The notes under the pieces are model-generated. The model ran no database searches. It was not told the origin of the DNA and worked only from the letters and a program-made list of their open reading frames with translations. Shown in pieces: positions 1 to 38,415 of a stretch of 38,415 nt of DNA. The position numbers were made by a program, and so were the translations under genes. The stretch is from Bacteroidota bacterium. Lineage in GTDB: Bacteria; Bacteroidota; Bacteroidia; Chitinophagales; Chitinophagaceae. The stretch is taken from contig JAFDXD010000160.1 of NCBI GenBank assembly GCA_018268135.1, positions 1 to 38,415 on the forward strand, written 5' to 3'. Each line of letters begins with the position of its first letter. The first letter of the stretch is position 1.

Positions 1-1080
1 AGAGCTTGGGCTCTCCAAGAACAAAAACTTTGCTATATGCGGGAACACCCAGTACAAATTCTAAGGTCCTCTCTCTTTGAAATAGAAGGGTTCGGAAAAA
101 TCCAAAGAAGTGGGCAATCCGCAGGTAACCGAAAAATATCGGGAACCTCAGAGACTACACGCAAAGCATACGATAAAAAATATGAAGAATGATTAATAGG
201 GTTTATAGAGGGGGATGGAAGTTTAATAGTGAATAAAAGTGGGTATTTGGAATTTAAAATAACACAGTCGTCTAGAGATGCACAATTGTTATTTAATATA
301 AAAAAGACATTAGGGTTTGGTAGTGTAACAAAACAATCAAAAATGTCAAATACTCATCACTATAGGGTAAGGGATAAAGAAGGGTTAGAAAAAATAATAG
401 AAATATTAAATGGTAATCTACAATTAAAGAAAAGACAAGATCAATTTAGAGAATTTGTGGAAGGGTTTAATAAACTATACAGTACAGCTATACAAATAAA
501 ACCTATACAAGATTTAATTAGTCTTGATAAGGCCTGAATAGCAGGATTCGCAGAAGCAGAGGGGTGTTTTACAGCAGGGATATGAGAGAAAAAAAACGAT
601 GGAAAGCGAACAGTGCAGATATCTCTAAGATTTATAATATCACAACAGGGGGAATTGGAGGTATTAGAACGAATAGGGGGATTATTAGGAGGAAAAGTGT
701 CAAAAGTAGAAAGTGCAGCAAGAGAATTAAAAGACGGAACAAGTAGACCGACATACTTAGGACATAATATGACTGTAAATTTTATATATTTAAAAACTGT
801 AATAGAATATTGAAGAAAAAATCCGCTAAAAAGTAAAAAGGACTTGTCCTATAAAAAATGATTAGAAATATACGACCAGGTAATATCAAATAAACATAGA
901 GAAAAAGTAGGAAGAATCTATGAATATAAATGAGATGTGATAGAGGCGATAAAACAAGAGGTCGAAAAATTAAAAAAATATAATAGAGAAAATGGAGATT
1001 CAGAAAACCCAGAAAACCCAGAAAACCCAGAAAACCCAGAACCCAGAATCAAGATATATAAAAATTGTATGAAGGTATAG
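1..1080 (+). CDS. LAGLIDADG endonuclease/maturase in the nad5 intron, fused to nad5 exon 1
   Basis: Read with UGA as Trp, the frame of nad5 exon 1 stays open through the splice site (38287), across the junction and on to TAG at 1078-1080. Two LAGLIDADG helices are visible: WLIGFIEGDG at about 190-219 and WIAGFAEAEG at about 535-564, so this is a double-motif monomeric enzyme. The stop codon lies inside the S box of the intron core. Enzymes of this family cut intronless alleles and/or help splicing. The first 180 nt encode core RNA and translate to a stretch (RAWALQEQKLCYMRE..GTSETTR) also seen in other intron ORFs here, so processing from the fusion is likely. The C-terminus has an Asn-Pro-Glu tandem repeat (1005-1044). 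Confidence 0.88.
1001..1045 (+). repeat. 9-bp tandem repeat in the nad5 intron ORF
   Basis: About four and a half copies of the unit AGAAAACCC, in frame, giving repeated Glu-Asn-Pro near the C-terminus of the intron-encoded protein. Confidence 0.85.
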
Positions 1081-2326: not shown

Positions 2327-3070
2327 ATGAAACATTATATGTTTATATTAGATATGGCAGAAAATGGACAAATAGGATTCCAAGATCCAGCCAGTCCAGT
2401 AGCAGAAGGAATAGTAAATTTTCATAATTATATCTTTACATATTTAACATTTATTGCAGTTTTAGTATCATGAATGTTAATATCAATATTAGTTAACTTT
2501 ACAAAAGCAAAAAGAAGTATATCACATAAACACATGATACATGGAACAGAGTTAGAGTTAATATGAACAGTAACACCAGCGGTAGTGTTAGTATTTATAG
2601 CATTCCCATCATTCCAATTATTATATTTAATGGATGAAGTGATTGAACCAGGGGTGACAATAAAAGTAGTTGGACATCAGTGATACTGATCATATGAATA
2701 CAGTGACTATGCTCCAGCACAAATAAGTTTTGATTCATATATGATACCAGATAGTGATTTAAAATTAGGAGAATTTAGATTATTAGAAGTAGATAACAGA
2801 GTAGTGGTACCAGTAGAAACACATGTGAGAGTAATAGTTACAGCAGCTGATGTTTTACACTGTTGAGCAATACCATCATTAGGAGTTAAAATAGATGCGA
2901 TACCAGGAAGATTAAATCAAACAAGTTTCATAGCAGGAAGAGAAGGAGTATTCTATGGACAATGTTCAGAAATCTGTGGAGCAAACCATGCATTTATGCC
3001 AATCGCAGTAGAAGCAGTAAGTATCGGAGACTACTGTGCATACATTACATCAACAGCTACAACAACATAG
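2327..3070 (+). CDS. cox2: Cytochrome c oxidase subunit 2
   Basis: Subunit 2 of complex IV carries the binuclear CuA centre that takes electrons from cytochrome c. The 247-residue product has two N-terminal membrane helices, then the conserved GHQWYWSYEYSD, the CuA ligand block [15 protein letters not shown], and [20 protein letters not shown]. All are intact. Trp codons are UGA. The start is the first ATG of the frame (2327); ATG 2339 ([11 protein letters not shown]) is an alternative. There is no intron. The stop is TAG 3068-3070, 46 nt before the cox1 start. Confidence 0.97.
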
Positions 3071-3116
3071 ACATTAGATAAACTATAGAAACATAGAAAG
3101 AGAAAAGGGGGGGGCC

Positions 3117-14759
<11,643 letters not shown>

Positions 14760-14975
14760 CTTGTAAAATTGTAATACAACTTAGTATAGAGAAAAAGAGC
14801 AGGTCAAATTTGCAGAGAGAAGTTAGGGTCAAAAAGAGACGCACGAGTTTGTGTTTATGTTTTGTCACATAAGGGCAATAAAAGATTAGAATAAAGGTAT
14901 AGCTAAAGTAGTTAATAAATAAGAAAAAAGGGGAAAATCGAACAAGTAGCATAAAAGATAAAGAATTGGAAAGAG

Positions 14976-15320
14976 ATGCAGGACATGAATGAATTATTAT
15001 ATTATCTAATTATAGCAGGAGTTTTATCTATTATTATGAGTGGAGCTAGCTATATATTAGGGGTGAGAAGACCGGAACCAGAAAAGGTATCGGCGTATGA
15101 GTGTGGATTTGATCCATTTAATGACTCAAGACAAAAGTTTGAAGTAAGATTTTTTTTAGTAGCGATATTATTTATAATATTTGATTTAGAAATATCCTTC
15201 TTTTTCCCTTGAGCAGTAGGGGTGAGTGTAGCAAATTATTGAGCAATGATAGTGTTAACTGTAATATTAACTATCGGATTAATATATGAGTGATATAAAG
15301 GGGGGTTAGAATGAGAATAA
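14976..15320 (+). CDS. nad3: NADH dehydrogenase subunit 3
   Basis: Small membrane subunit of complex I near the quinone site. The 114-residue product has [37 protein letters not shown], the ND3 signature with the conserved Cys of the switch loop, then three Trp encoded by UGA and a short C-terminal helix. Start at ATG 14976 (an internal Met lies three codons later). TAA 15318-15320 sits at the edge of a short repeat (GAGAATAAT three times) before trnY. Confidence 0.96.
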
Positions 15321-17195: not shown

Positions 17196-17267
17196 GAGTA
17201 CATAGCTTAGTGGTAGAGCAAGTCCCTTTTAAGGTCGAGGTCGTTGGTTCAAATCCAATTGTATTCA
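17196..17267 (+). tRNA. trnK: tRNA-Lys (UUU)
   Basis: Anticodon loop CTTTTAA; acceptor GAGTACA pairs TGTATTC. The anticodon stem has mismatches. It abuts the ATG of the rps3 N-terminal ORF directly. Confidence 0.87.
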
Positions 17268-17777
17268 ATGGCAAGAAAATCACATGTTATAGGTTATAGA
17301 TTAGGGGAATCTAAATGATGAGAATCTAGAACTCCACCGACAAGTACAACAACACTAAACCAAGAAGGAGAAATAATATCAGGGATAATGGAAAAGATGG
17401 GGTACAGTACTTCTAATATCCAATTAGAAGAAACGGATAAAATAAAAAGAATAAAATTAGTAGGTAATCCCTCTTCATACAAATGAGATAACCTAGAAGT
17501 TTATTTAATGAGTTATATTAAATCATTATTAACAACTTACTATAATAAACCTTATGAATTGAGTTATAGACAATTAAAGAAGTATTATAAGAATGGGAAA
17601 ATGTTAGCACAAATGATAAAGAAAAGTGAGAAAGGGTTATATACGACAATGAGAAAGGTGAAAAGAGTTGTTATGAGAGAGAGAAATAAACCTAAATATA
17701 GTAATTATAAAGTAAGAAGAAAGAGTGAAGGTTTTAGTGATAGGAAGTCCTATAAGTGGACATATAATAAAAGGTAA
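17268..17777 (+). CDS. rps3: Ribosomal protein S3, N-terminal part (split gene)
   Basis: Small-subunit protein at the mRNA entry channel. The 169-residue product starts MARKSHVIGYRLGESKWWESR, which fits the S3 N-terminal signature (..NPIGFRLG..K.W.S). The rest is basic and poorly conserved, as in many mitochondrial S3 proteins. It lacks the C-terminal S3 domain, which is found instead at 21779-22012, 4 kb downstream. Starts directly after trnK. Its 3' end overlaps rpl14 by 53 nt, and rps3 upstream of rpl14 echoes the bacterial S10 operon order. Confidence 0.75.
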
Positions 17778-17982
17778 GACTAAGATGGGAGAGAGAGTAG
17801 TTGTACGACATTTAGGGAAGGTAGAACATGGTGTAATAATAAGAACGAAGAGGTATACCAAAACAAAAGTAAGATTTGATGGAGTGGTAGTAATGTTAGA
17901 TAATTTAATGTCACGAGTTAAAGGTCCGATAAGTAAAGGATTGGATTCAAAAGTGACATCGTTAGCAAGTACGAAGATATAA
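17725..17982 (+). CDS. rpl14: Ribosomal protein L14 (uL14)
   Basis: Large-subunit protein at the intersubunit face. Reads VIGSPISGHIIKGKTKMGER, then GVIIRTKRYTKTKVRFDGVV, MLDNLMSRVKGPISKGL and VTSLASTKI. These match L14's VIVRTKK..R.DGS.I.FD.NA....GTRI.GPV pattern. 85 residues, shorter than bacterial L14 (122) and apparently missing the first strand. The only start in frame is GTG 17725 (an in-frame TAA lies at 17713), so it begins inside rps3. Confidence 0.82.
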   Translation: MKVLVIGSPISGHIIKGKTKMGERVVVRHLGKVEHGVIIRTKRYTKTKVRFDGVVVMLDNLMSRVKGPISKGLDSKVTSLASTKI

Positions 17983-18011
17983 GAAGAGATAAGAAGAGAT
18001 AAGAAGAGAGA
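17980..18011 (+). repeat. Short tandem repeat after rpl14
   Basis: Three copies of the decamer AAGAAGAGAT begin at the rpl14 stop codon, in the 110-nt spacer before nad1. Confidence 0.85.
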
Positions 18012-18092
18012 GAAAATGAGATGAGAAGATAAGATAATAAAAAAACCAACAATTACAAAAATCATTACAAAAAAAAGTATCAGAATAAATAA

Positions 18093-19028
18093 ATGAAAGG
18101 TATCGCAATCATAGTACCATTGCTAGTAGCAGTCGCATTTGTAACATTAGCGGAAAGAAAAGTATTAGGATCTATGCAATTACGAAAAGGTCCAAGTGTA
18201 GTAGGATTTATGGGGTTAATGCAAGCCATAGCGGATGGGGTAAAATTATTTACGAAAGAGACAATAATACCAAATCACTCTAATAAATGAGTATTCTTAA
18301 TAGCACCAGTATTAGGATTTACATTAGCATTATTATCTTGAGTAGTTATCCCATTTGGGGAAGGAGAAGTAATAATAGATGGTAAATTAGGAATACTTTA
18401 TCTAATGGCTATTTCTTCAATAGGAGTTTATTCTATTATTATGTCTGGATGAGGAAGTAACTCACAATATGCATTATTAGGTGCGATAAGAGCTGCAGCA
18501 CAGATGATAAGTTATGAAGTATCAATTGGAATAATTATATTAGCAGTGGTAATAAGTAGTGGACAATTGAATTTAACAGGTATAGTATTAGGTCAAGAAT
18601 CTATTTGATATTTAATTCCACAATTACCAGCTTTTATCATGTTTGTAGTATCCGCATTAGCTGAAACTAATAGATCACCATTTGATATAGCAGAAGGAGA
18701 ATCTGAGTTAGTATCAGGGTTTAATGTGGAATATTCGGGAATGTCATTTGCATTATTCTTTTTAGCGGAATATTCACATATAATATTAATGTCAGCAATA
18801 ACTAGTTTATTATTCTTAGGAGGTTGATTAGGACCAGTAGAAGGAATACCATGATTAGCAATAAAAATAGTGATGATGGTGTACGTATTTATCTGAGTTA
18901 GAGGTAGTTATCCAAGAATGAGATATGATCAGTTAATGGCATTATTATGAAAAAGCTATTTACCTTTAAGTTTAGCTTGATTAATTTTTGTTATTTCAAT
19001 AGAATTAGGAGTAGTAGGATTATTATAA
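18093..19028 (+). CDS. nad1: NADH dehydrogenase subunit 1
   Basis: Membrane subunit of complex I that forms most of the ubiquinone tunnel. 311 residues, about eight helices. Landmarks: [67 protein letters not shown] (invariant quinone-chamber loop), and [13 protein letters not shown]. Trp codons are UGA. Stop TAA 19026-19028; nad4 starts 17 nt later. Intronless. Confidence 0.97.
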
Positions 19029-19044
19029 TAGGAAAAAGAGAAGG

Positions 19045-20457
19045 ATGGAAGCATTGATGATAATACCTGTAATAGGAGTAATAGGGATATATTTTAACCC
19101 CTCAAAAAAATTAGCATTAGGGATAAGTTTAATTATAATGCTAGAAGCGATAAGAGTGGGGATAACGATGGATAAAGAAATTGGAGGGTACCAAAAAGTA
19201 ATGAGTTTAGAATGATATAATAAAGTAGTGTCATTTGGTATGGATGGTATCTCTATTAATTTTGTAATATTAACAACAATATTAATACCAATTTGTATAT
19301 TATTAAGTTGAGAATCAATAAACTTAATGAAAAAAGAATATTTAATAGCTATGATAGGAATCGAATGGTTATTAATTGGAGTATTCACTGTAATGGATAT
19401 CTTAGGTTTTTATGTATTATATGAAGGAGTTTTAATTCCAATGTTTTATATAATAGGAATATGAGGAGCAAGAGAACAAAAGATAACAGCTGCATATTAT
19501 TTCTTCTTTTATACATTATTAGGTTCAGTGTTAATGTTAATCAGTATCATGTATATCTATACAATTAGTGGTACAACAGATTATTCAGTATTAATGACAT
19601 ATACATTAACATCAGAAGTGCAAAAAGTAGTATTTATAGGATTTGTAGCAAGTTTAGCAGTAAAAATACCATTATACCCTTTCCATATTTGATTACCATT
19701 AGCCCATGTTGAAGCACCAGTAGGAGGGTCAGTGTTATTAGCGGGAGTGTTAATTAAATTAGGAAGTTATGGATTGATAAGATATGGATTAGGTTTAATG
19801 CCAGAAGCGTGTGAATATTTTGCACCAATTATATATCTATTAAGTATCTTAGGAGTAATATATGCTAGTTTAACAACAATACGACAAACAGACTTAAAAA
19901 GAATAATAGCATATTCATCAGTAGGACATATGGGTATTGTTACAATAGGTATTTTCACAAGAAATATAGAGGGAGTGGAAGGTTCAATATATTTACAAAT
20001 TGCCCATGGATTAGTATCTAGTGGGTTGTTTATCATTGTAACAATGTTATATGAAAGATATCATACAAGAATTGTTAAATATTATAGAGGGGTGACGATG
20101 ACAATGCCATTATATAGTTTAATGTTTTTAATATTGACGATGAGTAATATAGGAGTACCGGGAACAAGTAACTATATAGGGGAAATAATGAGTTTAGCAG
20201 GAGCGATGGAACAAAATGAAGTAGTTGCAGTATTAGGAGCAGTAGGTATGATATTATCAGCAAGTTATGGATTGTATCTATATAATCGAGTTTGTTTCGG
20301 AGGTATGTCTAGTTACATGTTAGAAGCACCTAGAGATATGACAAGAAGAGAAATGTATATAATAGCACCATTATGTATTTTAACATTAATATTAGGATGA
20401 TTCCCATCAATCATAGTAGATCCAATGCACGCTAGTGTAGTGTATTTATTAGTATAG
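19045..20457 (+). CDS. nad4: NADH dehydrogenase subunit 4
   Basis: Antiporter-like proton-pumping subunit of complex I. 470 residues. Conserved blocks are visible: MDGISINFVILTT, YVLYEGVLIPMFYIIGIWG (pump Glu), LPLAHVEAPVGGSVLLAGVLIKLGSYG, and LKRIIAYSSVGHMGIVTIG with the pump Lys. Continuous from ATG 19045 to TAG 20455-20457 with UGA as Trp. Intronless. Confidence 0.97.
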
Positions 20458-20486
20458 GGGGGGGGAGAATAAGAAAGAGAAAAGGC

Positions 20487-20561
20487 GAGAGTATGTTGGA
20501 ACGGTAGACAAGTTTGTCTTAGAAACAAATGTAATTGTGGGTTCAAATCCCTCTACTCTTA
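20487..20561 (+). tRNA. trnL(UAG): tRNA-Leu (UAG)
   Basis: Anticodon loop CTTAGAA on TTTGT/ACAAA stem; acceptor GAGAGTA pairs TACTCTT. rps14 starts 2 nt later. The variable arm is short for a leucine tRNA. Confidence 0.88.
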
Positions 20562-20562
20562 A

Positions 20563-20808
20563 ATGAAAATAAAAAGAGAAAAGATGCTAAGAGAGAATTT
20601 TGTGAAAGAACCAATACAACAAATTGTGGAACAAGTAATGAAAAGTATAGTAGAAGGGAAAGAAGAGAAGAAAAGAAGTTATAGAAACGTATGTCAAGTT
20701 ACAGGTAGAGGAAGGGGAGTTATAAAACATTGAAAAATATCAAGACATGTATTTAGACACTTAGTTGATAATGGAAAATTAGAAGGAGTGAGAAGAGCTA
20801 GTTGATAA
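20563..20808 (+). CDS. rps14: Ribosomal protein S14 (uS14)
   Basis: Small-subunit protein of the head. 81 residues. The family core is clear: RNVCQVTGRGRGVIKHWKISRHVFRHLV, then GKLEGVRRASW, matching C..TGR.RG....F.LSR..FR.......G..PG...ASW. The N-terminal part is a basic helix. Two Trp are encoded by UGA. It ends TGA-TAA, where TGA is the terminal Trp and TAA the stop. Confidence 0.92.
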
Positions 20809-20938
20809 GTAAAAGTGTGAAAATTAAAGTAGAGACAGAAGTAAACATGATTATGGAAGAGATAATAGAAGGAAGAGGAAAGGAGGAGAAGGCGGAAAGG
20901 GATTAGATAAGAGAAAAACTAAATCTAATAAAAGCAAA

Positions 20939-21733
20939 ATGAGTCAAAATTATCATCCATATCATTTAGTAGATCCAAGCCCTTGACCAATAGTAGGTTC
21001 AATGAGCGTATTTGGATTAGCTGTAGGGACTGCAATGTATTTCCATAGATATGCATTCGGAGAAAAATTATTATTATTATCATTAGTATTATTAATCTTA
21101 GTATTATACGTATGATTTAGAGATGTTATAAGAGAAGGGACATATTTAGGAGCACATACATTAGTAGTACAAAGAGGATTAAGATTAGGAATGTTATTAT
21201 TTATTTTATCAGAAGTATGTTTATTCATATCATTATTCTGAGCATTCTTCCATTCAGCATTAGTTCCAACAGTAGAATTAGGTAACCAATGACCACCAGT
21301 TGGAATAGTTCCATTTGATGCATTTGGAGTACCATTATTAAATACTGCAATATTATTAGCATCAGGAGCATTTGCAACATGAGCACATAATGCAATGATA
21401 AGTGGAAATAGAAAAGATACAATATTAGGATTAGAAATAACAGTGTTATTAGGAGTAATATTCACAGCATTACAAGGATATGAGTATTATGAAGCATCAT
21501 TTACAATTGCGGACTCTGTTTATGGAAGTTGTTTCTTTATCTGTACAGGAGCTCATGGATTACACGTTATTATGGGGACAATTATCATCATAGTTAGTCT
21601 AGTTCGAATTTATCAGTACCAAATGACAAAACATCACCATAACGGATTCGAAGCTGCTTTGGCTTATTGACATTTTGTGGACTTAGTGTGACTATTTTTA
21701 TATGTAGCAATTTATTGATGAGGAGGAGCTTAG
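20939..21733 (+). CDS. cox3: Cytochrome c oxidase subunit 3
   Basis: Seven-helix subunit of complex IV. 264 residues. Starts [22 protein letters not shown], the standard COX3 N-terminus. Further blocks: [80 protein letters not shown] and [22 protein letters not shown]. All intact. The 130-nt purine-rich spacer upstream shows no gene. Confidence 0.98.
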
Positions 21734-21778
21734 AACTTAAAAAATGAATCTTAGGGTAAATGAGAGAAAGAGCGAGAA

Positions 21779-22012
21779 ATGGAAAAAAAAGTGAAGGCAA
21801 AATTAGATAGAGAACAACAAGGGATAAAAAAGATCAAAGGGGTTGAAATGGAGTTAAGGGGAAGGATAAAAGGAAAAGACAGAACAAGTAAGAAGAAAGT
21901 GGTGTATGGAAAACAAGAGCAGGGGAATAGATTAAGTAGGATATCGTATGGGGAAGAATATATGATAACGAAATTTGGGGTATTAAATTTAAGAGTTAAA
22001 GTAGCAAGATAA
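21779..22012 (+). CDS. rps3: Ribosomal protein S3, C-terminal part (split gene)
   Basis: A 77-residue ORF between cox3 and rpl2 that reads as the S3 C-terminal domain: GVEMELRGRIKGKDRTSKKK, YGKQEQGNRLSRISYGEEYM, then TKFGVLNLRVKVAR. This matches the family pattern G..I...GR..G..R.......G......L...IDY....A.T..G..G.KVWI. ATG at 21779; an in-frame TAG lies 27 nt upstream, so it cannot be longer. Its partner is the N-terminal ORF at 17268-17777. Whether two polypeptides assemble in the ribosome is inference. Confidence 0.78.
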   Translation: MEKKVKAKLDREQQGIKKIKGVEMELRGRIKGKDRTSKKKVVYGKQEQGNRLSRISYGEEYMITKFGVLNLRVKVAR

Positions 22013-22021
22013 AAATAAAAA

Positions 22022-22660
22022 ATGAAAGAAGGATTAAGAAAAACAGGAGGTAGAAACAATAGAGGTAGAATTACAATAAGATTTAGAGGAGGGGGACATA
22101 AAAGAAATTATAGAATATTAGAGAAAGAAGAAACGACAGGATTAATAACATCGATAGAATATTCACCAAATCGAACGGCATATATAGGGAAATGTGAAGT
22201 ATATGGGGGGAAAGAGGTGTATAAGATAATAGGGGAACAGGAGATAGGAACGAAGTTAGAAGTGAAGAAATTAAAAGATGTGAAAGTGGGAGGAATGGTG
22301 TATGGGGTGGCAGAAAGACCAGGTCAAAGAGGAAAGATAGGACGAGCGTCGGGGGTAAAATGTATAGTGATAAAACAAGAAGAAAAAACGACTGTAATAA
22401 GATTACCATCGAAAGAATTGAAAACGTTAAATAATGAATGTACATGTACATTAGGAGAAGTTAAAATCAATGAAAGAATTAGAAGAGCAAAAGCGGGAAC
22501 AACGAGACGATTAGGTATAAGACCTAAAGTAAGAGGAACAGCAATGAATGCAGTAGATCATCCAAATGGGGGAAAAACAGGAGGGGGACAGTCAAGAACA
22601 AAATGGGGACAATTAGCGAAATGAATACCGACAAGATCTGAAAGAAAGATAAGACATTAG
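22022..22660 (+). CDS. rpl2: Ribosomal protein L2 (uL2)
   Basis: Large-subunit protein needed for peptidyl transferase function. 212 residues, lacking the bacterial N-terminal extension, as in several mitochondria. Blocks: LRKTGGRNNRGRITIRFRGGGHKRNYRI, IEYSPNRTAYIGKCEV, ERPGQRGKIGRASGVKC, IRLPSKELKTLN, then the catalytic-region GTAMNAVDHPNGGKTGGGQ with the conserved His. The C-terminus continues through a UGA Trp at 22622 to TAG 22658-22660. Confidence 0.95.
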
Positions 22661-28359: not shown

Positions 28360-29309
28360 CATCAAGGGGCGTATTATTCGAGAGAGTAATATTGAATTGG
28401 CTGTATGCTGGAACATCCGGTGTATCCTTCGTTGCTAATAAAAAGAAACAATACGAAGGTGCGGACAATCAGCAGGGAAGCTTTCTAATAAGAATAGCCC
28501 CTCAACGACTACACGCCGACAACTAAAATAGTTGATGATATAGTCTGATCTGCTATGCGAATAGTAGTTTTATTGAAAAAATAAAAGTCAAGAAGAATTA
28601 AAAAAACAAGTACATTAAACAATGATTAAAGAAAATAAGAAAATTAGAGGTGTTCTAAATACGGAAAGAAATCATGTAATTTATAAGAATAACGAAGATA
28701 TTTTGATCGGTACATTATTGGGAGATGGTTCATTACAAACATACAGTGATGGAAAAACATGACGATTAAGGTATTTACAAAAAGATGAGCAATATTTAAG
28801 ACATTTGTATAAATTATGAGAAGAGTTTACAGAAACAGGACCTAAATACATAGAGGATAAGGAAGGAAATGGGAAATGGTACTTTAATACAAAGGTATAT
28901 TCAGGATTTTTAGAGATAGCACATAAATTTTATAAGAAGAATGAGAAAGGTGTGTGAGTAAAAGTTGTACCAGAGGATATAAATTTAACACCAAGAGCAT
29001 TGGCTTATTGGTATATGGGTAATGGTTCAAAAAAAGAAAATGCACGAGCTTATATATTATGTACGGATAGCTTTACCAAAGAGGGGTTAGATATTTTGAG
29101 GAAAGAGCTAAATGAAAATTGGGGAATAATGGTAAACTATCATAGAACAGAAAAAGGTAATATGCGATTATATATACCAACGAAGTACAGTCTAAAATTT
29201 GAAGATCTGATAAGGGAGTACCTGGTAGAGAGTATGAAGACAAAGATTCATTGTGAAAGTGGAAAGTAGAATAGAGATTCCAATACGAGAATTCTTGATA
29301 ACAAAAATG
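28360..29309 (+). mobile_element. Group I intron in rnl (L2500 site)
   Basis: Separates GGCACCT from CGATGTTGATTCATC, i.e. after E. coli U2500 in the peptidyl transferase centre, a well-known intron site. Core precedes the ORF: GGACAATCAGCAGGGAAG at 28463-28480, R box CCTCAACGACTACACG at 28500-28515 (CAACGACT instead of CAGAGACT), S box GATATAGTCTG about 28537-28547. Confidence 0.92.
28622..29269 (+). CDS. LAGLIDADG_2-type endonuclease in the rnl L2500 intron
   Basis: 215 residues, ATG 28622 to TAG 29267-29269. It is a different family from the cox1 intron proteins: motif 1 is ILIGTLLGDGSL (about 28700) and motif 2 is ALAYWYMGNGSKK (about 28996-29034). The usual second motif is YWYMDDG; here Asp-Asp is Gly-Asn, so the second catalytic acid is lost. 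Such a protein would be expected to cut poorly, nick one strand, or act only as a maturase. The ORF lies in the 3' part of the intron, outside the core. Confidence 0.88.
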
Positions 29310-29764
29310 CGATGTTGATTCATCCCATCCTGGAGGTGTATAAGCTTCCAAGGGTTATTCTGTTCGAATATTAAAGGGGTACGTGAATTGAGTTTAGAGC
29401 GTCGTGAGACAGCTCGGCTTATATCTTTAATGTGAGAGATACAAGATTAATGGTTTAAATAGTACGCGAGGACCTTTAAGCCCATACCAATGGTATATCT
29501 GTTGTAATGTAAAAAGCATAGCAGAGTAGCTAAGTATGAATTGATAAGTGTTGAAAGCATATCAAACACGAAGTGAAAGAAAGAAAGTATCAATAAGAGC
29601 GACTAAAGATAATGGTCATAGGTCATAAGTGATAAGCTAAATGATACTAAATAAGCTCGAAGACTAAGTGAAAACATAAAATAAAAAGAAAAGGCAAAAT
29701 GTAATAGTTATCCGCAGAGATAACTTTAAATTCCATTCGTATTCAATTTGCTATCTGCATGTCC

Positions 29765-31669
29765 CTATCTTTCATACCATACCACTATTAGTACATTATA
29801 GATTGCTCTCCCTATATCTAATAACTTTTCATCATTCTTTATTGTGAATTCACTCGGTAGTCTTACTATACTCTTCTTAGTTTTAGATGGTTCTAGATCT
29901 ACATATTTTCCTTTTATATCTTCACTAATATTAAACTTAAGTTGAATTTGTTGTAGTTGTTGAGTATGAAAATCAGTAAGAAAATTAGAGCAGTAAAGAG
30001 AAGCAAATTGTTCTCTAATCATATAATGTAAATCTGGAACATTCTTTAATGTTGTTCCAAAACAATCATGTATAACAACAAGCTGAGAATGAGTTTTATA
30101 TCATTCAGTAGTTACCATAGTTAAGTGAGAAGCATCAAGAGAGTGAATAAGATTAGGGGCTAAAGAATTAACTTGTTTTCTAGAGGAAATTTTAGTATCT
30201 CTTTTAACACCTTTAATTGCTATTTTTACACCATCTAATATAACTCTGCCATATGTATAAGGTAGTAAGTCGGCAGCTGATGCCATTACTTCAATTCCAG
30301 CCGGTGTCTTTCATACTAAAGGTGTGTCTAATTTAGCTGATACAAGTGCTCAGCTTTTTAGAAACTTCATGAATACAGATAAATTCTGTAATACATTACC
30401 TTCATTAGTTGAATCGTATACAAATCTAGATATTACAATAATATCAGATACATCAAGAATAATATTATTTCTTTCATAAGTATCTTTAGAAATTCTTTTA
30501 AATTTAGATAGTATGTTCTGATGTGTAGTTAGTAGGGTTGCATTATAAGCTTTAGTCATAATAGGAATTTTTAATAAATCTCTATTAATATTACACTGCA
30601 GTAGTTTTTCTCAATTAGGTGTTAAAATATATTCTCTACAATTTTGAGCTACTATTTCATATAAGTCATAAGGTCTATCTGAAGGAGTTGCAGCAGTCAG
30701 GTTAACATACTTTGCTAAAGTTTAATCTTTTATTAAGGCAGCAATATGTTGTAAACCACTGCACGTTGAATCATATCTAAAGATAATCCTTGTTATAAAA
30801 GGTTTAGATTTATCCCTTTTCATGTATCGACAGTACTCTAGTTTTCATGCTTTAAATAATAACGGAGATTTAGCTTTATATCAATACTCATCATTATCAT
30901 TAGTTCAATCAAAAATTGAATTTAAGTTATTAACATAGTATATATCCATTGAAGCTCATGACATCTTTAAACCACTGTCGTCTACACCTCCTGTATACAA
31001 CATAACTCCATATCTAAAGTAATCACCTTCATTTACAGGATCAAATACTGACCCTTCATGAAATAATAATAATGATTTAGCTAACTCTCCAGCTTGATAA
31101 TGTAAATATTTATTACCACAGTAAATTCTACCTCTAAAATCATAGAATACAGGTATATGAAAATAATCTATACTAGAATAGACTGTAGCTAACAATAAAG
31201 TATATAAAGCTGAAAAAGTAAGAGATCTCTGAGATTGGTATTCATTTTTAACTATACGAGAGGAATTCATAACATCAAGTAAACTATCATCAGGAACATT
31301 ATTAGTTTTCTTATGAGTATAATAATCTTTAACTGATGATCTATAGTCATTTAGAGCTATTTTACGCTGATTATGGCTAACAGAACTTAACATAAGGATA
31401 TTATCAATAATAGTAGTATCATTAAGAGAAAGCTGATGAAGGATAAAAGAAAGCATTTCAAAATTTATAAGATAACTATCAGATAGTAGGTTTTGTGCAT
31501 TAATTAAAAGTTGATTATTTTTATTTAATTTAGTTCGATGAATATTAGTGTAAGAATCATGCACAATTTGATAATCATCAGGGTATTCAGATAAAATAAA
31601 AGGTAAGTCATCAGCATTTTTAGAGATGAAGTCATCAAGATTTTGATCTGATCAACACAAACATACACA
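29765..31669 (-). pseudogene. rpo: Phage-type (plasmid) RNA polymerase, interrupted
   Basis: Single-subunit T7-like RNA polymerase of the kind encoded by mitochondrial linear plasmids. With UGA as Trp, one frame runs the whole length except for one TAA at 30722-30724. Motifs in order: FYDFRGRIYCGNKYLHYQ (catalytic Asp region), DSTCSGLQHIAALIKD (just before the TAA), KIPIMTKAYNATL, WKTPAGIEV, APNLIHSLDASHL and VIHDCFGTTL (second catalytic Asp). The N-terminal third is missing: the frame is closed by a TAG at 31670-31672 and shows no clear start. About 635 codons remain. The nonsense codon suggests a relic unless it is an assembly error. Opposite strand to neighbouring genes. Confidence 0.88.
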
Positions 31670-31776: not shown

Positions 31777-32892
31777 CGCACTAAAGTGCCATTCTTGCTC
31801 TTAAGAGGATCTGATTGAGTTATGGCCGTTACAGGTAATTGAGAGGGTGGATATTTCAGCGAAGAGTTAAAGTACGCTGAAGGAAAAGGGTATAAGATAG
31901 AGGTACTAAGAGGGTACAACTTCTTAAATAAAGGTTATATATTTAAAGGGTATATCGAGCCAATATATAAGATGAAGTCGTCAGCATCAGACATAGTAGA
32001 GAGATCAATAAATAAGTTGCTATTAAACTCACTATATGGGATGATGGGGTATAGAGGCAATGAAACTAAACTTGATATTCAAGTTAAAGAGGGGGCTATG
32101 ACAAATACAGTACGAGAATTAGAAGAAGGTCATAATAATGAATACAGTATAAATGTGGCAATAGCAGCAGCGGTAACAGCATATGCACGTATAAAAATGA
32201 ATGAATTGAGAGATCGAATGGTGTACACAGACACAGAGGTAGTGCACGGTGAACTAGAACCGTCAATGGTCAGCCCAAGTGAAATAGGAATGTTTAAACA
32301 TGAATTTAGAATTAAAAACGCAGTGTTTAAGGCACCTAAAACATATGGAGTTGAGACATGAGAAGGTGATATAAAGATAGCATCAGCGGGTATTAAGAAA
32401 GGGTTGGTAACACTAGAAGATTTATATAGAGCAATAATAGGTAATAAGGAGGCTATGGAGAAAGTGTATAAATTTGATGCATTTAAGAGATTAGTAGATG
32501 TAGGTTCAATGTCTATATCTAGTGTAAAATATACACGTAAAACACCAGGACTAGCGGACGGAAGAGCTAGAATTGTATATACACATAAGGATAGTGGAGT
32601 AGTTACATGGATAGGAACTCTAGCGTGACGACTTGTAGATGGAAAGTTAATAGATCCAACAAGCTATATGATAGGTAATATGGTAGTAATGAAGGAGTTT
32701 GATGTAAATACACAGGGTATGGAAGGAGTTAGTGTAGCGAAAGGGTCAGTGGAGGAAATGCAAAAGAAGATGAATAGGACTAAAGGTAAAGCTTCTGAAA
32801 AGAGTGTAAAGGATGATAAAGATGAAGGGGTAGCGGAAGGAAAGTTAGGTTATGAGGAAACAGAGGAGAAAATAAAAGAAAAGGCGGGATAG
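31777..32892 (+). pseudogene. dpo: Family B DNA polymerase (linear-plasmid type), 5' truncated
   Basis: C-terminal portion of a protein-primed B-family DNA polymerase. With UGA as Trp the frame is open from 31777 to TAG 32890. It contains GGYFSEELKYAEGKGYKIEVL (post-motif A region), motif B KLLLNSLYGMMGYR (about 32014-32055), a motif C-like VYTDTEVV (about 32221-32244), and FKAPKTYG with the KxY motif (about 32329). Motif C should read YxDTDS; the second Asp is Glu and Ser is Val. The exonuclease domain, TPR regions and motif A (DxxSLYP) are absent. The C-terminal 60 residues are a charged low-complexity tail. Most likely inactive. Confidence 0.85.
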
Positions 32893-34002: not shown

Positions 34003-34134
34003 ATGCCACAATTAAACGTAGAAACATTTGTAACACAATATGTGTGATTATTAGTAATATTAGGAGTAACAATATACCATGCAACGACAAGATTAGAATT
34101 AGCAGAAATAATAAAATTAAGAAAAAAAATATAA
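34003..34134 (+). CDS. atp8: ATP synthase subunit 8
   Basis: A 43-residue protein starting MPQLNVETFVTQYVW, matching the MPQL-D-P signature of A6L/ATP8, with one hydrophobic helix and a basic tail (IIKLRKKI). At the short end for the family (usually 48-68). Located directly after atp6, whereas animals and fungi usually have atp8 before atp6. TAA 34132-34134. Confidence 0.88.
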
Positions 34135-34390: not shown

Positions 34391-34462
34391 TAAGCTAGAA
34401 AGGAATTGAACCTTTGACCACTTCATTATCAATGAAGGGCTCTACCACTGAGCTACGAGCTT
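34391..34462 (-). tRNA. trnI: tRNA-Ile (GAU)
   Basis: Anticodon loop TTGATAA on CTTCA/TGAAG stem; acceptor AAGCTCG pairs CTAGCTT with one mismatch; discriminator A. Confidence 0.92.
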
Positions 34463-35094
34463 TGGGAGCTAAATCATTTAAGAAGAAAATAGTACATGAA
34501 AAATGTCCATTCTATTAATAAAATGAGTGGTAGTAGAATCAAAAGGAAAGAGAAAAGATCTGCAAAAATGGAAGCAATTAATAGAGAGAATAGGTAAAGA
34601 AAAGGTCGAGAGATGTGAAAGTAGACGAAGAGGGGGAGAATGAAGATGAAAAGGATACCGGCGGAAACATCAAGAAAGACGGAAAGTAGATCGAGGATGT
34701 TAGGAGTGAAAAGGAAAGAGTCTGAATGGAATGTAGTAAAAAAGGTAGGAGATAGTAGTATTAAAGCTGGAAAACAACAGAAGTAGAGAAGAAGAGAGAA
34801 AGAAAGGTAGATAAGGGAAAGGATGAGGGAGATACGTTCGTGAGGAAAAAGGGCGGGAAGGAGTCATAAGAAAAGGAGAGTGAGTAAGAAGGGGGAAGTT
34901 CAGAAGAAAGAAAGGATGAAGGAGAAGAGGAAGAAGGCATAAAAAGCATCATCTCATTTAGAGTGTAAGAAGTAAAAAGGAGAGTATTGAAAAAGGACAT
35001 CCAAATGAAGTCAAATTATACTAAGAGTTATTATAAAAGATATTAGATAATAAAGTGATTTAAATTTAAGCTCTTTAATATGGAAGTAAAACAT
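34463..35094. other. 632-nt purine-rich spacer
   Basis: Longest gene-poor stretch of the genome, very rich in A and G. One UGA-reading ORF at 34503-34703 (66 residues, basic) is listed separately. I recognise no ribosomal protein, 5S rRNA or repeat array here. The minus-strand frames are Ser/Leu/Phe-rich low-complexity shadows. Confidence 0.5.
34503..34703 (+). CDS. Hypothetical basic 66-residue ORF
   Basis: ATG 34503 to TAG 34701 with three UGA codons read as Trp; begins MSILLIKWVVVESKGKRKD and is Lys/Arg-rich throughout, ending with RRKHQERRKVDRGC. A remnant ribosomal protein is possible, but I cannot match it to any family. With only TAA and TAG as stops in A/G-rich DNA, an ORF of this size may be chance. 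Confidence 0.25.
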
Positions 35095-35177
35095 TGGAAA
35101 GAGTGGGGCTCGAACCCACAAGCATTTTATTGCGACAGTTTAGCAAACTGGTCTATTGACCATTCTAGCATCTCTCC
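35095..35177 (-). tRNA. trnS(GCU): tRNA-Ser (GCU)
   Basis: Anticodon loop TTGCTAA; long variable arm; acceptor GGAGAGA pairs TCTTTCC; discriminator A. Confidence 0.93.
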
Positions 35178-36055: not shown

Positions 36056-36472
36056 GTGCCAACATTAAGACAAATAATAAGAAAACCAAGGAAAGAACAA
36101 GAGAAGAAAATAAGAACGAGAGCATTAGAAGGAAATCCACAAAAAAAAGGAGTAGTTCTAAGAGTATTTACACGAAAACCTAAAAAACCTAATTCAGCAT
36201 TACGTAAATTAGCTAAAGTAAAATTATCTAACGGAAAAATATTAGATGCATATATAATGGGAGAAGGACATAATATACAAGAACACTCAGTAGTATTGGT
36301 GAGAGGGGGAAGGGTACCGGATTTACCAGGGGTGAGGGTGCATTTAGTGAGAGGAGTGTATGATTTAGGAGGGGTGATAGGAAGAAAAACATCGAGAAGT
36401 AAGTATGGAACGAAAAGAAGTAAAAGAGAATGAAAAGACATAAAGGGAGAGTATCATATATACCAAAAATAA
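36056..36472 (+). CDS. rps12: Ribosomal protein S12 (uS12)
   Basis: Decoding-centre protein of the small subunit. Starts with GTG: the canonical N-terminus [12 protein letters not shown] begins exactly there and the tRNA-His gene ends 1 nt before, so no ATG is possible. Landmarks: [56 protein letters not shown], and SRSKYGTKR. Under UGA=Trp the frame runs past the usual end (36431 UGA) for 13 extra codons to TAA 36470-36472, overlapping rpl16 by 43 nt. The family normally ends at the UGA position (125 residues). Confidence 0.94.
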
Positions 36473-38286: not shown

Positions 38287-38415
38287 TGAAACAAAAGAGC
38301 TTGGGCTCTCCAAGAACAAAAACTTTGCTATATGCGGGAACACCCAGTACAAATTCTAAGGTCCTCTCTCTTTGAAATAGAAGGGTTCGGAAAAATCCAA
38401 AGAAGTGGGCAATCC
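38287..38415 (+). mobile_element. Group I intron in nad5 (5' start)
   Basis: First bases of the nad5 intron. From 38296 on the sequence is the same as 1-120, so the intron really continues at position 121. Confidence 0.92.
38296..38415 (+). repeat. Terminal 120-bp overlap with positions 1-120
   Basis: The final 120 bases match the first 120 exactly as far as I compared them. Coding and intron sequence read through this join in one frame, so it is an assembly overlap of a circular (or tandem) molecule of 38,295 bp, not a biological terminal repeat. Confidence 0.95.

What the first reader, a model, noticed from the sequence alone, without database searches (positions are those of the whole stretch)
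17268..22012. Ribosomal protein S3 gene split into two separate loci
An S3 N-terminal ORF (17268-17777) lies before rpl14, and an S3 C-terminal domain ORF (21779-22012) lies before rpl2, with nad1, nad4, rps14 and cox3 between. Neither is a full S3; together they total 246 residues. Split rps3 is known in ciliate mitochondria; I know of none in an opisthokont-like genome.
Basis: partly seen in the sequence, partly recalled or inferred. Interest (0 to 1): 0.72.

Follow-up and report, generated by a model that had tools for sequence, protein, structure and literature searches.

The report
Split mitochondrial ribosomal protein S3 gene
In this protist mitochondrial genome the gene for ribosomal protein S3 appears to be broken into two separate genes, one for each half of the protein, an event known from ciliates and one amoeba but not seen here in print for an animal- or fungus-type mitochondrion.

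Summary
The window is a complete circular mitogenome of 38,295 bp (exact 120-bp terminal overlap), a contig in a bacterial assembly. No full-length S3 was found in it. ORF 17268-17777 (169 aa) aligns with S3 residues 1-138, ORF 21779-22012 (77 aa) with 124-200; they lie 4,001 nt apart on one strand. The C half matches Pfam Ribosomal_S3_C (E 2.2e-4, below the curated cut-off). The N half is weak alone (E 0.1 in PDB, S3 first); joined, they match TIGR01009 over its length (E 1.3e-5). Both have coding-type codon usage. Best explanation: two mtDNA-encoded chains that together form uS3m; expression and assembly are untested. The N half reads out of frame into an rpl14 that lacks about 35 N-terminal residues, suggesting a deletion junction. 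Split rps3 is known in ciliates and Acrasis kona, so this is a further, apparently independent case. It matters because uS3m splitting has been proposed as an intermediate toward loss of the S3 C-domain in Holozoa, and this mtDNA has a holozoan-type gene set. The species is unknown; a nuclear full-length S3 cannot be excluded.

The parts
17196..17267 (+). tRNA-Lys(TTT); its last base directly precedes the ATG of the S3 N-half
   Evidence: ARAGORN; Rfam tRNA
17268..17777 (+). rps3N: uS3m N-terminal half, 169 aa; residues 1-135 align to S3 1-138, the last ~30 residues are a non-homologous tail
   Evidence: codon usage
17725..17982 (+). rpl14, GTG start, 85 aa; lacks about 35 N-terminal residues of L14; overlaps rps3N by 53 nt in another frame
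   Evidence: (0 of 2000 shuffles reach its score against E. coli L14); no Pfam or NCBIfam hit
18093..19028 (+). nad1
19045..20457 (+). nad4
20487..20561 (+). tRNA-Leu(TAG)
20563..20808 (+). rps14
   Evidence: PF00253 E 4.1e-16
20939..21733 (+). cox3
21779..22012 (+). rps3C: uS3m C-terminal part, 77 aa; aligns to S3 124-200
   Evidence: PF00189 E 2.2e-4, positions 25-83 of 83; TIGR01009 145-203
22022..22660 (+). rpl2, 9 nt after the rps3C stop
   Evidence: PF00181, PF03947

Best explanation
The mitochondrial rps3 gene has undergone fission. Its two pieces are now separate genes on one strand, expressed within different gene runs (tRNA-Lys, rps3N, rpl14 and cox3, rps3C, rpl2), translated separately, and assembled non-covalently on the small-subunit head into one functional uS3m: the N half gives the KH-type N-domain and the first helices of the C-domain, the C half the rest of the C-domain at the mRNA entry. 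Shown here: the two frames, their homology and order relative to S3, their coding signature, and that no intact S3 was found in the closed mtDNA. Inferred: expression, assembly, domain boundaries (from alignment to E. coli S3, structure recalled), and an origin by duplication and loss, in which the segment between rps3N and rpl14 (ancestrally the rps3 3' part, rpl16 and the rpl14 start) was deleted while copies of rps3C and rpl16 survived elsewhere.
For: C half: PF00189 E 2.2e-4 over positions 25-83 of 83; TIGR01009 145-203 of 212, E 0.002; 2 of 2000 shuffles reach its score against E. coli S3. N half: S3 sequences are the top 5 of 7 PDB hits, aligned 1-135 to 1-138; 0 of 300 shuffles reach its best score against 32 bacterial S3s, 10 of 2000 against E. 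coli S3 alone. Joined halves (ORF1 tail cut by me at residue 141): TIGR01009 E 1.3e-5, 25.0 bits against 17.9 for the C half alone, query 1-215 on model 1-202; PDB S3 E 5.7e-4 from two collinear stretches. Each is the best of 1,031 frames for its S3 part. Coding signature. Complete circle. The N half lies upstream of rpl14 as in the E. coli order. Precedent: Tetrahymena uS3m is assembled from separate chains (PMC7326499, passages).
Against: N half alone has no S3 hit in Pfam or NCBIfam and only E 0.1 in PDB. For the C half 7 of 300 shuffles reached its best score against the 32 S3s; PF00189 is under its cut-off and was not reported for it in the own-assembly search. With the 32-S3 HMM, joining gains almost nothing (5.9 bits against 5.3 for ORF1 alone) and the C part aligns at the wrong place. 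In one search neither stretch alone is significant (0.3 and 18). The in-frame codon score with the all-gene model is slightly negative (-0.07, -0.24), though above other frames and shuffles. Models without relatives are poor (pLDDT 45 and 59) and no Foldseek row shown is labelled S3. No relative found, so no test of selection; no RNA or protein data.
Confidence: 0.72

Rival explanations
1. Relics: a nuclear S3 gene has taken over and the two ORFs are decaying fragments.
For: The N half has a foreign tail and rpl14 beside it is truncated. The host's nuclear genome is not held; the only PF00189 match in the assembly is the bacterium's own S3 on another contig.
Against: Both frames are open, start with ATG, stop cleanly, and score above other frames and all 1000 shuffles with a codon model of this genome's ribosomal genes. 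The C half matches its domain to the profile's last position.
Confidence: 0.12
2. The 17268 ORF is not S3; only a C-terminal S3 gene remains, and the N-domain is nuclear or lost.
For: No curated profile identifies it; PDB E only 0.1; poor model.
Against: S3 is the top PDB hit, residue 1 to 1, over 135 residues; it is the best frame of 1,031 for S3 1-138; joined with the C half the S3 score rises from 17.9 to 25.0 bits; it lies upstream of rpl14.
Confidence: 0.1
3. The two parts are exons joined by trans-splicing of a split intron into one mRNA.
For: Some nine LAGLIDADG-like ORFs (counted by eye, motif recalled) lie between 3349 and 14377; Rfam finds a group I intron at 6069-6292, 49.7 bits.
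Against: ORF1 runs straight into rpl14 (53-nt overlap) and only 45 nt separate cox3 from ORF2, so intron halves would have to overlap genes. Rfam finds no intron in 17200-22100, but in 3000-15000 it finds just one intron and one fragment, so its silence is weak. The parts overlap by about 15 S3 residues (124-138), which joined exons would duplicate.
Confidence: 0.05
4. Misassembly of an intact rps3.
For: The contig belongs to an assembly of 166 contigs; reads are not available here.
Against: It closes as a circle, has no N, and two separate chimeric joins would each have to end in a coherent start, stop and codon frame.
Confidence: 0.01

Closest known systems
Split rps3 of ciliate mitochondria (rps3 / ymf64; rps3a, rps3b)
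   Same: S3 N and C parts in separate genes, the C-domain ORF mtDNA-encoded (PMC2779199; PMC5664110 Table 1; PMC7326499; passages).
   Different: In Tetrahymena the break lies inside the N-domain, which is built from three proteins including nuclear-encoded ones, and the Euplotes C-part genes are 767 and 768 aa. Here the break is near S3 residue 138 and the halves total 246 aa, with only a ~30-residue tail added.
rps3_a / rps3_b of Acrasis kona (Heterolobosea)
   Same: Split; the halves are 4,588 bp apart with other genes between (PMC4202320, passages).
   Different: [quoted passage not shown] 86 and 93 residues map to Naegleria S3). Here they are compact, N then C along the strand.
rps3 of Monosiga and Amoebidium mtDNA; none listed for Ministeria and Capsaspora
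   Same: Holozoan mtDNA with rps3 among the retained ribosomal genes (PMC7027106 Table 3, passages).
   Different: No split is mentioned in the passages seen.
Animal uS3m (MRPS24)
   Same: S3 without its C-domain (PMC7326499); weak local similarity to ORF1 residues 79-108.
   Different: Nuclear gene (recalled). 52 of 3000 shuffles reach the ORF1 score, 105 of 3000 with looser gaps, and a nad1 frame scores higher, so the resemblance is only a lead.

Membership tests
split mitochondrial rps3 | no intact rps3 in the mtDNA | tested here: met
   closed circle; the best two of 1,031 frames against E. coli S3 are the two parts
split mitochondrial rps3 | separate ORF homologous to the S3 C-domain | tested here: met
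   PF00189 E 2.2e-4, positions 25-83/83, 22.1 bits, below the curated cut-off of 34.1
split mitochondrial rps3 | separate ORF homologous to the S3 N-domain | tested here: met
   met with reserve: top 5 of 7 PDB hits are S3, 1-135 on 1-138, but E 0.1; 0 of 300 shuffles; adds score when joined; no curated profile hit alone
split mitochondrial rps3 | both products present in the mitoribosome | not testable with these tools
   no proteomic data
split mitochondrial rps3 | no joined (trans-spliced) mRNA | tested here: inconclusive
   no room for intron halves; Rfam silent but insensitive here
holozoan mitogenome | gene set: UGA as Trp, nad1-6/4L, cob, cox1-3, atp6/8/9, a few ribosomal genes, tatC in some | tested here: met
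   profile or PDB matches for cob, cox3, nad1, nad4, nad5, atp6, atp9, rps12, rps14, rpl2, rpl16, rpl6; tatC weak (18.5 bits, cut-off 132.7); nad2, nad3, nad4L, nad6, cox1, cox2, atp8 named by eye; compared with PMC7027106 Table 3
holozoan mitogenome | phylogenetic position within Holozoa | tested here: inconclusive
   cob ranks animal chains first, cox3 about ties plant and animal, nad1 and nad4 rank plants first, organisms of PDB entries recalled; no tree built; no close relative found

The most novel reading that the evidence does not exclude
This is a uS3m split into mtDNA-encoded N- and C-domain chains in a unicellular holozoan, the kind of intermediate that was proposed (from a ciliate) for the loss of the S3 C-domain in the animal mitoribosome; the split lets the two domains be lost, moved to the nucleus or reshaped independently, and the rps3 not listed for Ministeria and Capsaspora mtDNA may be overlooked or half-lost in the same way.
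Probability: 0.35. Interest if true: 0.68.

Novelty: new member of a known kind. Interest (0 to 1): 0.5.

Why it matters
S3 lines the mRNA entry of the small subunit and has lost its C-domain in the animal mitoribosome. A split N/C arrangement in a holozoan-type mtDNA would give another, apparently independent lineage in which the two domains are genetically uncoupled, and makes the proposal of PMC7326499 (splitting as a possible step toward C-domain loss in Holozoa) directly testable by sampling relatives. It also warns that rps3 'absence' in annotated protist mtDNAs may be a missed split gene.

Tried and rejected
Relatives: viral-contig scans with cox3, nad4, rpl2 and a bacterial S3 gave no relative. 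The cob scans gave 14 viral-contig loci and the 80 best of at least 585 genome-contig loci; none of these 94 matched any of the other 19 query proteins of this mtDNA by tblastn, so they look bacterial. cob searches of 294, 395, 396 and 395 genomes of the bacterium's family, phylum, order and class (overlapping draws, own genome included) found, besides the window, 4 matches at E <= 1e-60, on contigs that look like other, distant mitochondria.

Structure: AlphaFold on each half alone was low confidence. Foldseek found nothing at E <= 0.001; 50 of 113 and 50 of 153 rows were shown, none labelled S3, though three ribosome entries appear for the C half with chains not named. The helix/strand order of ORF1 agrees with the S3 N-domain only as recalled and is not used as evidence. 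My S3 HMMs (10 of 32 loci parsed, 32) were too narrow to be significant.

rpl14 N-terminus: no convincing copy elsewhere (best score 34). Repeats near the two loci: only short or imperfect ones, none read as explaining the rearrangement. MRPS24 resemblance of ORF1: tied second of 1,031 frames; the control, MRPS24 against E. coli S3, gives no signal either (754 of 3000 shuffles as good).

Papers: 10 searches (listings). Passages seen of PMC2779199, PMC10809612, PMC7194472, PMC5664110, PMC4202320, PMC7027106, PMC3879969, PMC11871222, PMC7326499. No split rps3 in an opisthokont was seen in these. Swart et al. 2012, cited in PMC4202320 for split rps3 in 'a number of eukaryotes', was asked for by a recalled DOI and is not held, so other cases may be in print.
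Full report
What the window is. It is contig C67 of a 3.27-Mb, 166-contig assembly whose own S3, on another contig, is an ordinary bacterial one. The contig itself is mitochondrial: table 4 frames with TGA as Trp, mitochondrial-type respiratory genes, rRNAs and tRNAs. Its first and last 120 bases are identical and nad5 runs across the ends; there are no Ns. So it is a complete circle of 38,295 bp, presumably binned with the bacterium by mistake (inference).

Observation. The S3 N-terminal ORF is 17268-17777 (169 aa, ATG directly after tRNA-Lys, TAA) and the C-terminal ORF is 21779-22012 (77 aa, ATG, TAA). 4,001 nt separate them on one strand, holding most of rpl14, then nad1, nad4, tRNA-Leu, rps14 and cox3.

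Homology of the C half. Pfam Ribosomal_S3_C: E 2.2e-4, 22.1 bits (below the curated 34.1), model 25-83 of 83; VAR1 (the yeast S3, recalled) follows at E 0.012. TIGR01009: E 0.002, 145-203 of 212. PDB: one hit, E 0.77, itself a Ribosomal_S3_C protein. Against E. coli S3, 2 of 2000 shuffles reach the score; against the best of 32 bacterial S3s, 7 of 300 do. The six-frame PF00189 search of the own assembly did not report it at E <= 0.001.

Homology of the N half. Pfam shows only a DUF at E 0.23 and NCBIfam nothing. In PDB, S3 sequences are the first five of seven hits, E about 0.1, residue 1 to 1, over 135 residues. Shuffles reaching the score: 0 of 300 against 32 S3s, 10 of 2000 and 12 of 3000 against E. 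coli S3. The E. coli alignment covers 1-135 against 1-138. The halves joined (ORF1 cut by me at residue 141, plus ORF2) match TIGR01009 from 1 to 202 at E 1.3e-5 and PDB S3 at E 5.7e-4 in two collinear stretches, neither significant alone. With my narrow 32-sequence HMM joining gains almost nothing and the C part is misplaced. Of 1,031 frames of 20 aa or more, ORF1 ranks first for S3 1-138 and ORF2 first for S3 124-207. I take the N half as S3 with some reserve.

Coding signal. In-frame codon scores of both ORFs exceed the other five frames and all of 1000 shuffles, with models trained on 17 genes and on the ribosomal genes among them. With the all-gene model the scores are slightly negative for whole ORF1 and for ORF2 (-0.07, -0.24), with the ribosomal model positive (0.06, 0.13). 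Open by base composition: 0 of 20,000 shuffles for ORF1, 62 of 20,000 for ORF2.

Anatomy of the break. The N half ends its homology near S3 residue 138 (nt about 17672-17682), then has about 30 residues of foreign tail, the last 53 nt out of frame inside rpl14. rpl14 starts at GTG 17725 with an in-frame TAA four codons upstream and aligns with E. coli L14 only from residue 38 of 123 (0 of 2000 shuffles reach its score), though no curated profile names it. No convincing copy of the missing L14 start was found elsewhere. In E. coli rps3 is followed by rpl16, rpl29, rps17 and rpl14. Here rpl16 sits far away, overlapping rps12 by 43 nt, and rps3C ends 9 nt before rpl2. The simplest reading (inference) is that a segment from the rps3 3' part through rpl16 into the rpl14 5' part was lost at this spot while copies of rps3C and rpl16 survived elsewhere. 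The two halves overlap by about 15 residues of S3 (124-138), which fits duplication and loss better than one clean cut.

Mechanism. Most likely both parts are translated on their own and assemble on the ribosome. The Tetrahymena mitoribosome is a precedent: its uS3m is made of separate chains, the C-domain being encoded by mitochondrial ymf64 (PMC7326499, passages). Expression and assembly are not shown here. Trans-splicing is unlikely for lack of space for intron halves; Rfam found none, but it found only one intron and one fragment in the intron-rich stretch 3000-15000, so that silence counts for little. A nuclear full-length S3 could not be looked for.

Which organism. Gene set: cob, cox3, nad1, nad4, nad5, atp6, atp9, rps12, rps14, rpl2, rpl16, rpl6 by profile or PDB match; nad2, nad3, nad4L, nad6, cox1, cox2 and atp8 (43 aa, from 34003) by eye; rpl14 and the split rps3 as above; a weak TatC. 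Apart from rpl6 this fits inside the list printed for Monosiga (PMC7027106 Table 3, passages). cob ranks animal structures first, but nad1 and nad4 rank plants first and cox3 about ties (organisms of PDB entries recalled). I call it holozoan-type, species unknown. No close relative was found in the collections open to me.

Known or new. Split rps3 is established in ciliates (PMC2779199; PMC5664110 Table 1; PMC11871222) and in Acrasis kona (PMC4202320). Break points and sizes differ, so this looks independent. Ten literature searches showed me no opisthokont case, but the library is partial and Swart et al. 2012 was not available. PMC7326499 suggests that uS3m splitting might be an intermediate toward the C-domain loss seen in Holozoa. 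A split gene in a holozoan-type mtDNA is what that idea would predict, though whether this organism lies anywhere near the line to animals is unknown. A weak resemblance of ORF1 to animal MRPS24 (52 of 3000 shuffles as good) is only a lead.

Verdict. Confirmed observation, supported interpretation, a known kind of event in a new type of host; interest 0.5.

Noticed in passing
window 1-120 and 38296-38415: Exact 120-bp terminal overlap: a complete circular mitogenome left as a contig in a bacterial assembly rated 100% complete and 1.38% contaminated.
   Followed up: yes
window 17725-17982: rpl14 lacks about 35 N-terminal residues and overlaps the S3 N-half by 53 nt; no convincing copy of the missing part in the mtDNA.
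   Followed up: partly
window 34453-35121 (-): 222-aa membrane-type ORF with a weak TatC match (TIGR00945 E 1.5e-3, 18.5 bits, cut-off 132.7).
   Followed up: partly
window 34003-34134 (+): Short atp8-like ORF, 43 aa, starting MPQLN; identified by eye.
   Followed up: no
window 36430-36472: rps12 and rpl16 overlap by 43 nt in different frames.
   Followed up: no
window 29765-31660 (-) and 31786-32889 (+): Two pieces of a phage-type RNA polymerase frame and a type-B DNA polymerase fragment, perhaps from a mitochondrial plasmid.
   Followed up: no
window 28400-29310: LSU rRNA seems interrupted by a stretch with a homing-endonuclease-like ORF (28622-29269, by eye); a further LSU piece matches at 29310-29415.
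   Followed up: no
L133 5834-9628 (G301 contig 6; also L134, L137): Another mitogenome-like contig of 53 kb in an assembly of the same bacterial family: an S3 C-domain match sits at the end of a 1,264-codon frame (PF00189 E 0.005, below cut-off) and cox1 and cox2 share one frame.
   Followed up: partly
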